57,545 bases of DNA from a virus. This document shows positions 6,444-20,245 of the stretch, one piece after another. Under the pieces are notes generated by a model. That model saw only the letters and a list, made by a program, of their open reading frames with translations, was not told the DNA's origin and ran no database searches. The translations under genes were made by a program, and so were the position numbers. Each line of letters starts with the position of its first letter. Positions within the stretch are counted from its first letter, which is position 1. Location of the stretch: the IMG/VR virus record IMGVR_UViG_3300034523_000291, positions 1-57,545 of that record; one strand, given 5' to 3'.

Positions 6444-7231
6444 CCCGACGCTATTTCCGCAGCGCTCGGTTGATAGTCGGCTTCAGCCATCTCGCAAAAA
6501 AAAGAGCAAGCTGGTAACGCCTCGTTTCGTCGGGGTTTACCAGGCGAAAGGTCACGTAGAGAGAAACGGATATTGGTCTTACGGTCGCGATGCAGGTACG
6601 AGCCTGAGCCAAGTTCGTCCTGGACACGGCAAAGCTCTTCAAATTGCTCCGGAAAGTCCTCGCGGATCGCTCGAAAGTAGCCTTCGCCACCTTTCACGCA
6701 GCCGATGCAGTTGGCGTTGTCGTAGCCCAGGCGGTACATCAGTGGCAACTCGATCCCAGCGCGCTGGATCATCGCCTTGCAATCCTCTTTGCCCAGGCCC
6801 GCGTCAATCAGCGGGGCAATAACAGGGCGATCAGGGTTTCGGTCTCGGAAGTCTTCCAGGCGGTCTACTTCTTCCATCGTGTAACCAAACACCATCACGT
6901 CGCCAGGGTTCTTCCATGCGTCGAGCAACCGCCGTTTCAACAGCTTTGTGCATGGCGCACCATTGCGCCCTTTCATGAAACGCTCGCGCCGGAAAACCTG
7001 AATGATGTCTGCGCCGTATTTCTCGTCACGCAGTTGCGCAATTCCCTGACCGAACCACTCCTGGCAGTCCAGCAAGAACCGCCGGTTATCTTCATGCTCG
7101 TTTGCCAGAAAAGCATTGATGATCTGCACGTCGTGCGTGGCGCCGTATTGTGCCAGGGCCATCTTTGTGGCCACAGCCGAGGCGGCGCCGCAGCTGAACT
7201 GGCAAACGATTCGGGGTCGTTGTGCGGACAT
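6440..7231 (-). CDS. PAPS reductase-like PP-loop protein
   Basis: 263 residues. The N-terminal SCGAASAVATK is a PP-loop type ATP-binding motif (residues 13-23), followed by FLANEHEDNRRFL, and a Cys pair NCIGCVKGG (Cys175/Cys178) plus Cys94 in APCTKLLKRR. This is the phage branch of the phosphoadenosine-phosphosulfate reductase family. Such proteins are common in phages; whether they act in sulfur metabolism, tRNA thiolation or DNA modification is not settled, and no dnd or dpd partner genes are seen here. Confidence 0.82.
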   Translation of the reverse strand: MSAQRPRIVCQFSCGAASAVATKMALAQYGATHDVQIINAFLANEHEDNRRFLLDCQEWFGQGIAQLRDEKYGADIIQVFRRERFMKGRNGAPCTKLLKRRLLDAWKNPGDVMVFGYTMEEVDRLEDFRDRNPDRPVIAPLIDAGLGKEDCKAMIQRAGIELPLMYRLGYDNANCIGCVKGGEGYFRAIREDFPEQFEELCRVQDELGSGSYLHRDRKTNIRFSLRDLSPGKPRRNEALPACSFFCEMAEADYQPSAAEIASG

Positions 7232-13599: not shown

Positions 13600-13791
13600 G
13601 GTCGCCTCCAAGGTGGCGGGTTGTTCACCTTTATTCGTCAACACTCATGCCTCCCGCTGGTTGCCGATGGGCGCGGGGGAGGAGTGCTGACGTAATAGAG
13701 GTGGGAAAGGGAGGACAGGTCATCCAACTTCGTTGAAGCTGCGCTTTTATTGCGGGGCAGTTGAGTGTACTGATAGGCTCAAAACAGCGAT

Positions 13792-15308: not shown

Positions 15309-15337
15309 AATATAAGCCCGCTTATTTTATTCGTCAA
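15309..15337 (-). promoter_or_regulatory. PL-like leftward early promoter
   Basis: On the minus strand TTGACG (15332-15337), a 17-nt spacer and TATATT (15309-15314): close to a sigma70 consensus. One CI-type operator covers the -10 side and a second adjoins the -35, so repressor would shut it fully. It should drive the leftward early genes from 14584 on. Confidence 0.8.
15312..15325. promoter_or_regulatory. Distal operator OL1-like
   Basis: ATAAGC-CC-GCTTAT, a perfect 6-bp dyad overlapping the -10 of the leftward promoter. The arms are identical to the operator at 20232-20245 next to cro. Confidence 0.8.
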
Positions 15338-15350
15338 TAAGCAGGCTTAT
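15337..15350. promoter_or_regulatory. Distal operator OL2-like
   Basis: ATAAGC-AG-GCTTAT, identical over all 14 bases to the operator at 20232-20245. It abuts the -35 of the leftward promoter and is 25 bp from the neighbouring site. Confidence 0.82.
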
Positions 15351-15774: not shown

Positions 15775-15797
15775 AAAAAGCCCGCGCGTAGCGGGCT
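15775..15797 (-). terminator. Terminator of immunity-protein gene
   Basis: On the minus strand AGCCCGC-loop-GCGGGCT followed by TTTTT, 25 bp after the stop at 15822. Confidence 0.75.
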
Positions 15798-15821: not shown

Positions 15822-16647
15822 CTACTTGCCGGAAGAGGCCCACCGAGCCAGCGTCCAATAGGTTGACTGACCAATCCTTGGCTCCTTTGCGTACTCTGTA
15901 GGGCGCTTCAAGCCGACCTGCATAAGATCGTCTCGCACCTGCAGGACAGTCCAGCGAATATCCCTCGCCAAGTCCTTTTGGTGGAAACAATTTTCCCCCG
16001 AGGTTCTGTCAGCCCAGGCGGTGAATTCTGACTGGTTATAGTGAAAGAGGGATTGATTGAAATCGGTAGCGGAAACGCAGCCAAAAGCTGAGCCGTCTAA
16101 AATAACCAGGTCGTCGGCTGATGCACGAAAGGTACCGGGCGCGGCAATGTGTGAGGCTACATTCGCCACCGGGAGCAAACGGTACGCGATCGCACCGATA
16201 ATGATTGCCACGAGACCAGAGCACAGCGCTACGAACAGCGCATTATTGCCAGCTGCCGAAGCTGCTCCCGAAATTACTTCTACAGACTCCGTGACAGGAC
16301 TCTGACTTTCTTGGTTGATGGGCCCTGCGTTATCGTCAGGCAAAACATCGGCGCCGCAATGTTTGCACTTTATTGCTGCGCGCTTGATGGTCTCGGCGCA
16401 CATTGGGCAAATCCTGTCAGAAGAGGCGCCGATCTCAGAGGGCAGCTTTTGTTCTGTATTCGCCGAAACCGACCATACGAGCGCTGCCACCCATCCAAGT
16501 GCTGTCCAGCCTAGCAACAGGTTCATCAAAAAAAATCGAGTTGCCGTTGCGATGCTTGCGCTTTGCAGCCACGAAGGTGGGCGTGAAATATATGACGAAG
16601 GCAGCCATTAGAAGCACAAAGCCGGCCAGTGGACTTCCACTATCCAT
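15822..16647 (-). pseudogene. Superinfection-immunity zinc-ribbon protein, split
   Basis: The 5' frame (start 16647) encodes FVIYFTPTFVAAKRKHRNGN-SIF, and the next frame continues MNLLLGWTALGWVAALVWSV; together these form the T4 Imm-like superinfection-immunity membrane domain. The frames meet at an A8 run (16528-16535); seven A would make one continuous protein. After the membrane domain come a zinc ribbon (CPMCAETIKRAAIKCKHCGA), a third membrane helix (LFVALCSGLVAIIIGAIAY) and a C-terminal domain of unknown function. The full protein would be about 274 residues. The downstream part alone (235 aa from a TTG) may still be made. Confidence 0.8.
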
Positions 16648-16744
16648 ACCAAAAAACTAGTCCATTGAATTGAGTTAGCACTTTATCATTCGTGGCGTAC
16701 AGCCACCATTGGCGGCGTACGGATTCAGGTCGGGTAGGGGAGAT

Positions 16745-16775
16745 ACAAGAAGCCCGGCGCTGGACCGGGCTTTTG
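16745..16775 (-). terminator. Terminator of small secreted gene
   Basis: AGCCCGG/CCGGGCT hairpin right after the stop at 16777; T-rich on the minus-strand side. Confidence 0.7.
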
Positions 16776-17423: not shown

Positions 17424-18497
17424 TCAGACAACCCTGAGACGAGGAGGCGTTATCGGACGGTTCGGCTCGGGTTGCTCTCCTAGCACCCCTTGGAGAAGAG
17501 AGTCCATCTCATCGAGAGGAAGGTTAAGTTGATCGGCAATCGACTCCTTCGTATAGCGATCCTTCCAAAGCTCTTCAAGCACTTTTCGCCAAAGCACAGA
17601 GAATTCCCTATCCATAGATTGGGGTTCCTTTGTTCTATAGCCAGCTATTGCAATCTGCTTGCAGATCTCTCTGTAATGCCAATCAGATAAAATATTTACA
17701 TCCCTAAGGCTCCGAGCCAAAGCAGGTACAGAAACTCCCCATCTTTTCTTGCTGGCGATAATTTGTGAAATGGATCTTACTGAGGGAAGATTTGCAATCA
17801 AATCTTCCCTGGGTATCAACAGGTTAGACGCAAATGCGTCCGCATCTCGCTCAACATCAGAGCCTTCAGTATAACCATGCGCATGCATTAGCAAATGGCC
17901 CAGCTCATGAGCGGCGTCGAACCGGCTGCGTTCTGACGACTTTATGGTATTCAAAAAAATAAATGGAGTGCCATCTCTCCAAAATGAGAATGCGTCAACG
18001 TCACGACCTTCCGACAAAGTGAAGATCCGAACACCTTTAGATTCGAGAAGCTTGATCAAGTTTGGTATAGGACGGAACCCAAGGCCCCAATGACGCCTAA
18101 TTGATGCTGCAGCTGAAACTGGATCTTCATCTCTTAGATCGAGTAGGTCTTGTGTGGGAAGATTAAATTTACTTGCAACCCAGTCGTTGAATAGATACCC
18201 AAGCGCACCGCTGGCTAATGCCGCGTCTGTTTGTTTGGCAGTCATTGATTTTAGACTACGAAAACTTACCTGCTTGCTATGTAGCTCATCTACATCGTCA
18301 AGATAAAAGAACTCAACTGGATACTTTAAAGCCTTCGCTATTGCGGCTACTGTTTCTGTTGAGGGTTCAATGGTAACCCCTTTTGCTATCCTAGAGAGTG
18401 TGACTTGAGTAACTCCAGACAGCTCTGCGAGTTTTTTTTGCGTAAGCTGCCTGCGCTTTCTAGCGAAGTCGAGCCGTGAAAGATTGAGATTCGCCAT
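17424..18497 (-). CDS. XRE regulator with ImmA/IrrE protease
   Basis: 357 residues. Residues 7-65 are an XRE helix-turn-helix (LTQKKLAELSGVTQVTLSRI). The central part is a COG2856/ImmA-type zinc metallopeptidase with HELGH at 197-201 and the third ligand region VERDADAFASNLLIP (Glu216). The C-terminus (to RLRVV) is helical. In related systems ImmA cleaves a repressor to release mobile-element or stress genes. The gene starts 2 bp after the stop of the partner at 18500, so the two form one operon controlled by the 45-bp dyad upstream of the partner. Confidence 0.88.
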   Translation of the reverse strand: MANLNLSRLDFARKRRQLTQKKLAELSGVTQVTLSRIAKGVTIEPSTETVAAIAKALKYPVEFFYLDDVDELHSKQVSFRSLKSMTAKQTDAALASGALGYLFNDWVASKFNLPTQDLLDLRDEDPVSAAASIRRHWGLGFRPIPNLIKLLESKGVRIFTLSEGRDVDAFSFWRDGTPFIFLNTIKSSERSRFDAAHELGHLLMHAHGYTEGSDVERDADAFASNLLIPREDLIANLPSVRSISQIIASKKRWGVSVPALARSLRDVNILSDWHYREICKQIAIAGYRTKEPQSMDREFSVLWRKVLEELWKDRYTKESIADQLNLPLDEMDSLLQGVLGEQPEPNRPITPPRLRVV

Positions 18498-20231: not shown

Positions 20232-20245
20232 ATAAGCAGGCTTAT
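20232..20245. promoter_or_regulatory. Operator OR1-like
   Basis: ATAAGC-AG-GCTTAT, perfect 6-bp arms, 15 bp before the cro start and at the predicted start of the cro transcript. Identical to the distal site at 15337-15350. Confidence 0.82.

What the first reader, a model, noticed from the sequence alone, without database searches (positions are those of the whole stretch)
16524..16540. Superinfection-immunity gene split at an A8 tract
Removing one A joins two frames into a perfect Imm-like domain plus zinc ribbon. The tract (T8 followed by G in the message strand) is a likely site for phase variation, transcriptional slippage or programmed frameshift, or it is a homopolymer sequencing error.
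Basis: partly seen in the sequence, partly recalled or inferred. Interest (0 to 1): 0.7.

Follow-up and report, generated by a model that had tools for sequence, protein, structure and literature searches.

The report
Prophage exclusion-type gene, homopolymer frameshift
A gene in a Pseudomonas prophage that resembles phage superinfection-exclusion genes is knocked out of frame by one extra base in a run of eight; close relatives carry seven (intact) or six (broken), so this looks like an ordinary slip mutation in a mutable, dispensable gene rather than a new kind of switch.

Summary
On the minus strand an imm-like gene (ATG at 16647) is split at T8 (A8, 16528-16535). The halves score 18.1 and 26.0 bits to PF14373 (cut-off 27.9); read across the tract they give 61.9 bits, full length.

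Of six close relatives (76-97% identical over the 234 residues downstream of the tract), four carry T7 in frame, one has TTTTTCTG in frame, and one (L004) carries T6, broken the other way. Some 40 more distant homologs have no such tract. The tract is therefore a lineage-specific codon accident, not a conserved recoding site. The intact ancestral state is T7.

No other coding homopolymer that could be compared in the window is shifted, so a generally error-prone assembly is unlikely. A local error cannot be excluded.

The window copy also lacks an AGG upstream of the start that nearly all relatives keep. Other family members are broken elsewhere (L150, L228). Best reading: a recent, slip-prone, probably leaky loss-of-function allele of an accessory gene. 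Reversible phase variation is possible but unshown; a programmed frameshift is disfavoured.

The parts
16528..16535 (-). T8 tract in the message strand (A8 on +): the frame break
   Evidence: Read directly. Relatives: T7 in L003, L005, L007, L008; T6 in L004; TTTTTCTG in L006
16435..16647 (-). Upstream ORF, 70 aa: first transmembrane helix and first half of the Imm domain, then an out-of-frame tail
   Evidence: ORF list; PF14373 profile 1-21
15822..16529 (-). Downstream frame, 235 aa: second half of the Imm domain, zinc ribbon, third hydrophobic helix, C-terminal domain
   Evidence: ORF list; PF14373 profile 22-42; 76-97% identical to six relatives
16347..16412 (-). Zinc-ribbon motif ICPMCAETIKRAAIKCKHCGAD
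   Evidence: Zn_ribbon_3 20.1 bits, below the cut-off of 27; the four Cys are invariant in the orthologs
16655..16658 (-). Place of the weak Shine-Dalgarno AGGT of the imm start; reads AGTT in the window
   Evidence: AGG is kept in this leader in the 18 other phage-type family members compared; AGGT in 17 and AGGC in L013
16687..16706 (-). Conserved leader element GTGGCTGTACGCCACGAATG (palindromic, promoter- or operator-like), about 40 nt upstream of the start
   Evidence: Single copy in the window; exact copies in 46 viral contigs, mostly followed by accessory membrane, lipoprotein or secreted genes
16750..16772 (-). Terminator-like hairpin that separates the imm gene from the upstream small genes
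   Evidence: Consensus scan
15779..15797 (-). Terminator-like hairpin after the imm gene
   Evidence: Consensus scan
17424..18497 (-). Prophage regulator: HTH plus IrrE/M78 peptidase domain, on the same strand upstream
   Evidence: PF01381, PF06114; phrog_2439 transcriptional regulator

Best explanation
The thing is an accessory (moron) gene of a temperate Pseudomonas phage. It encodes a three-helix membrane protein with an Imm-type two-helix domain, a zinc ribbon and a variable C-terminal domain, and it sits behind its own conserved leader on the repressor strand. In this copy slipped-strand replication lengthened an in-frame T7 run by one base, between the first and second membrane helix, so ribosomes make a 70-residue fragment instead of the 274-residue protein. 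Shown: the split, the intact T7 relatives, a T6 relative, absence of the tract in the wider family. Inferred: that the change is real in the DNA, recent and mostly loss of function; that a small amount of full-length protein is still made because bacterial RNA polymerase skips a U on T8 runs; that the intact protein works in exclusion of other phages.
For: Domain joins exactly at the tract. Naturally intact orthologs of 274 aa with the full PF14373 domain, 60.7-64.6 bits. Tract lengths 6, 7 and 8 in the clade; T7 in four of six relatives and no such tract in about 40 homologs. Constraint until recently: on the window branch 3 of 10 polarised codon changes are nonsynonymous, and 4 of 14 for window plus L004, against about 75% expected if neutral, binomial p about 0.004 and 0.0003. 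Second lesion-like change: AGG upstream of the start reads AGT only in the window. Family members broken elsewhere: L150 has ACG at the start and TAG in the domain, L228 is frameshifted. Literature: in P. aeruginosa mismatch-repair-deficient lines all indels fell in homopolymers, with rates rising to a plateau at 7 and above (PMC4702332). E. coli RNA polymerase needs about 7 T to slip, and a T8 frameshift made from a T7 run still gave full-length product (PMC6260861).
Against: No raw reads, so a local error cannot be ruled out. All three broken relatives are metagenome contigs and none is an isolate genome (3 of 27 against 0 of 30, p = 0.10). The low nonsynonymous share fits equally well a gene that is still switched on part of the time.
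Confidence: 0.6

Rival explanations
1. Sequencing or assembly error: the true tract is T7 and the gene is intact.
For: T7 is the in-frame state of the closest relatives. Broken relatives are found only in metagenome contigs. The nonsynonymous share is low.
Against: The window has other coding runs of 7-8 in unbroken frames: T8 18432 and A7 17953 in the regulator, whose profile match runs through both, G7 33244, A7 48267, T7 34022. Those with comparable relatives show no net length change. No other frameshift in a conserved gene against relatives up to 96% identical. The same tract differs in an independent contig, L004.
Confidence: 0.2
2. True phase variation: the tract is a contingency locus that switches the exclusion protein on and off in lysogen populations.
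For: Three lengths in seven close copies, with two independent off states on terminal branches. Surface or exclusion functions are typical contingency targets. CwpV is a phase-variable phage-exclusion protein, though it switches by another mechanism (abstract; mechanism from general knowledge).
Against: Tract only 7-8 long and A:T. In P. aeruginosa mutators 96% of indels were in G:C runs (PMC4702332). Not conserved: L006 keeps the protein without the tract. The window start region has an extra change that would not revert with the tract.
Confidence: 0.14
3. Programmed transcriptional slippage or ribosomal frameshifting that makes a short and a long product on purpose.
For: E. coli RNA polymerase slips on poly(T) of 7 or more, and a T8 frame mutant was rescued (PMC6260861). 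A case with an A11 run is known in tssM (PMC4256274).
Against: The relatives encode the long product without any shift. No tract in more distant homologs. The 30-residue out-of-frame tail has no matching counterpart in the intact relatives. No selected slippery heptamer or stimulator was tested.
Confidence: 0.06

Closest known systems
PF14373 Imm_superinfect / phrog_1039 'immunity to superinfection' (T4 Imm type)
   Same: Full-length match of the two-helix domain: 61.9 bits, phrog_1039 E 2.6e-23. T4-like phage genes named imm align over residues 9-108 at 35%.
   Different: Here 274 aa with a zinc ribbon, a third helix and a C-terminal domain, carried by a temperate phage, and broken in this copy.
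Homopolymer frameshift alleles of mutable tracts in Pseudomonas
   Same: One-unit change of a run of 7-8, giving a frame loss that can revert by the same process (PMC4702332).
   Different: A:T tract in a phage gene; no population or reversion data.
T8 frame mutant of mboIIM2 rescued by RNA polymerase slippage (PMC6260861)
   Same: An in-frame T7 turned into T8, with deletion slippage giving some full-length protein.
   Different: Engineered reporter in E. coli; here a natural sequence without expression data.

Membership tests
PF14373 Imm_superinfect family | Full-length domain match above Pfam's gathering score | tested here: met
   61.9 bits over 1-42/42 when read across the tract, cut-off 27.9; intact orthologs 60.7-64.6. 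As encoded in frame, neither half reaches the cut-off.
PF14373 Imm_superinfect family | Two membrane helices | tested here: inconclusive
   Helices 6-31, 38-65 and 131-157 in a low-confidence model, mean pLDDT 39.
PF14373 Imm_superinfect family | Blocks DNA entry of superinfecting phage | not testable with these tools
   Needs plaque and injection assays.
Phase-variable (contingency) locus | Tract length differs between close copies and changes the frame | tested here: met
   T8, T7, T6.
Phase-variable (contingency) locus | Both states present within one population, reversible | not testable with these tools
   No reads available.
Phase-variable (contingency) locus | Tract maintained across relatives | tested here: not met
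   Interrupted in intact L006; absent in about 40 further homologs.
Programmed frameshift / slippage gene | Conserved slippery site with conserved two-frame organisation | tested here: not met
   Five of six close relatives are single-frame; outgroups have no tract.

The most novel reading that the evidence does not exclude
A phase-variable superinfection-exclusion gene of a temperate phage: slippage at T6/T7/T8 makes lysogen populations heterogeneous for exclusion, with leaky full-length product from T8 through RNA polymerase slippage and a split two-chain protein from T6 (stop and start overlap as TGATG in L004).
Probability: 0.13. Interest if true: 0.55.

Novelty: new member of a known kind. 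Interest (0 to 1): 0.27.

Why it matters
If it is only a slip mutation, it is a caution: the gene would be mis-annotated as two ORFs, and the phage may not exclude its relatives. If the tract switches in lysogens, it would mean that a prophage can vary its own exclusion function at random, which would change how superinfection and phage co-existence are modelled. The comparison also exposes a modular family of Pseudomonas prophage accessory genes behind one conserved leader, which is likely the more useful lead.

Tried and rejected
Plasmid collection: no match. The phage collection gave no ortholog of the whole gene; MT839206 shares the flanks but carries a different gene in the slot. One genome-contig scan and 398 Pseudomonas genomes gave no ortholog of the T7 clade, only partial relatives, with Imm domains in frame where present. 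First N-segment dN/dS was out of frame and was redone. AlphaFold model too weak for a fold search, which was not run. No hit in NCBIfam or PADLOC; nothing meaningful in the PDB by sequence. Considered frameshift candidates at 13752, 15714, 26944 and 28070: by my reading outside genes or upstream of the likely start, or (26944) in a poorly conserved stretch. No paper was found on frameshift or phase variation in this family.

Full report
WHAT IS THERE. The window is a virus record of 57,545 bases, by content a temperate Pseudomonas siphovirus or prophage: its relatives in the phage collection are Pseudomonas phages phiAH14a, PseuP_222 and Aurca01, and an integrase match lies at 6597-7202. A8 lies at 16528-16535 and reads as T8 then G in the minus-strand message. 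Upstream frame 16647-16435 (70 aa), downstream frame 16529-15822 (235 aa). Read across the tract, the two give a 274-residue protein without a stop.

IS THE SPLIT MEANINGFUL. The two halves match PF14373 over profile positions 1-21 (18.1 bits) and 22-42 (26.0 bits), both under the cut-off of 27.9; joined they score 61.9 bits over 1-42. PHROG phrog_1039 'immunity to superinfection' matches the joined protein with E 2.6e-23. Five viral-contig relatives encode the same 274-residue protein in one frame, with 60.7-64.6 bits. The run itself is of ordinary length for this window: 1.23 A/T runs of 8 or more expected, 3 seen.

THE TRACT IN RELATIVES. Six close relatives were found. L003, L005, L007 and L008 have T7 and are in frame. 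L006 has TTTTTCTG and is in frame. L004 has T6 and is out of frame in the other direction, with a TGA stop overlapping the ATG of the downstream part. On the tree L004 is sister to L005 (support 0.999), while the grouping of window with L003 is weak (0.13). So T8 and T6 are best read as two separate changes from T7 on terminal branches. The N part of the window is identical to L005 and the C part is nearer L003, which hints at recombination. Among about 40 further homologs in Pseudomonas genomes and viral contigs the site reads ATCTTTCTG, ATTTTCCTA and the like, without a run. The tract thus arose from the codon choice ATT TTT TTG (expected in 1.4% of Ile-Phe-Leu by the window's codon usage) and is not a conserved recoding signal.

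ERROR OR REAL. Against relatives up to 96% identical I found no other frameshift in a conserved gene of the window. Other coding runs of 7-8 are in unbroken frames, such as T8 at 18432 and A7 at 17953 in the regulator, whose profile match runs through both. Those that can be compared show no net length change. This speaks against a generally homopolymer-error-prone assembly. But the three broken relatives all come from metagenome contigs and none from isolates: 3 of 27 against 0 of 30, p = 0.10 with the Pseudomonas genome loci counted, p = 0.54 with viral contigs only (isolate or metagenome judged from the IMG number in the contig name). A local error keeps a probability of about 0.2.

DECAY OR SWITCH. 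Nonsynonymous changes are few on the window branch (3 of 10) and on window plus L004 (4 of 14), where about 75% would be expected without constraint. The protein was therefore under constraint until recently, or still is part of the time. On the other hand the weak Shine-Dalgarno AGG upstream of the start, kept in the 18 other phage-type members compared (AGGT in 17, AGGC in L013), reads AGT in the window. L150 has lost the start codon (ACG) and carries an in-frame TAG, and L228 is frameshifted near the end of the domain. Recurrent loss by different lesions is what an accessory gene under fluctuating need shows. It does not require a switch.

HOW IT WOULD WORK. The intact protein has three hydrophobic helices (6-31, 38-65, 131-157; low-confidence model), with the tract at the start of the second and the zinc ribbon between the second and third. 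By family and by analogy with T4 Imm, named in a review as an inhibitor of DNA injection (PMC11436027), it may act at the inner membrane against entry of other phage DNA. This is inference. T8 gives a 70-residue fragment with one helix. Some full-length protein is still expected: E. coli RNA polymerase slips on T runs of 7 or more, and a T8 frame mutant was rescued in a reporter system (PMC6260861). In bacterial genomes, selection against such runs is usually visible only from about nine (PMC1088944), so the effect should be small. Length changes of runs of 7 and above are the expected slip mutation in Pseudomonas, although A:T runs are less mutable than G:C runs there (PMC4702332).

CONTEXT. 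The gene lies downstream of an HTH-IrrE regulator on the same strand, between two terminator-like hairpins, and behind a 20-base palindromic element that occurs exactly in 46 viral contigs and 9 of 398 Pseudomonas genomes. It stands a fixed distance, mostly 53 nt, before the start of quite different accessory genes. The N-terminal module is exchangeable: L139 and L140 carry a different two-helix module on the same ribbon and C-terminal domain.

VERDICT. Real in the sequence, well explained as a one-base slip in a lineage-specific T7 run of an accessory gene. Not a programmed frameshift. Phase variation open, with a low probability.

Noticed in passing
16687-16706 (-): Element GTGGCTGTACGCCACGAATG with a following leader of about 30 nt is shared by 46 viral contigs and 9 of 398 Pseudomonas genomes, and mostly precedes diverse small membrane, lipoprotein or secreted accessory genes with the start about 53 nt away. 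It looks like a common promoter/operator module for prophage accessory genes.
   Followed up: partly
L139 and L140, 1100-2034: Domain swap: another two-helix N-terminal module in place of the Imm domain, with the same zinc ribbon and C-terminal domain.
   Followed up: partly
L150 1381-1530; L228: Other broken copies of Imm-type genes: start codon ACG plus internal TAG in L150, frameshift near the domain end in L228.
   Followed up: partly
15312-15325, 15337-15350, 20232-20245: Three copies of the near-palindrome ATAAGCAGGCTTAT in the immunity region, possible operators of the phage regulator.
   Followed up: no
L132 400-1700 (MT839206): A different gene fills the same slot between shared flanks, as expected for an exchangeable accessory locus.
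   Followed up: no
L004 around 1652-1660: In the T6 copy the upstream stop TGA overlaps the downstream ATG (TGATG), so a two-chain protein by re-initiation is conceivable.
   Followed up: no
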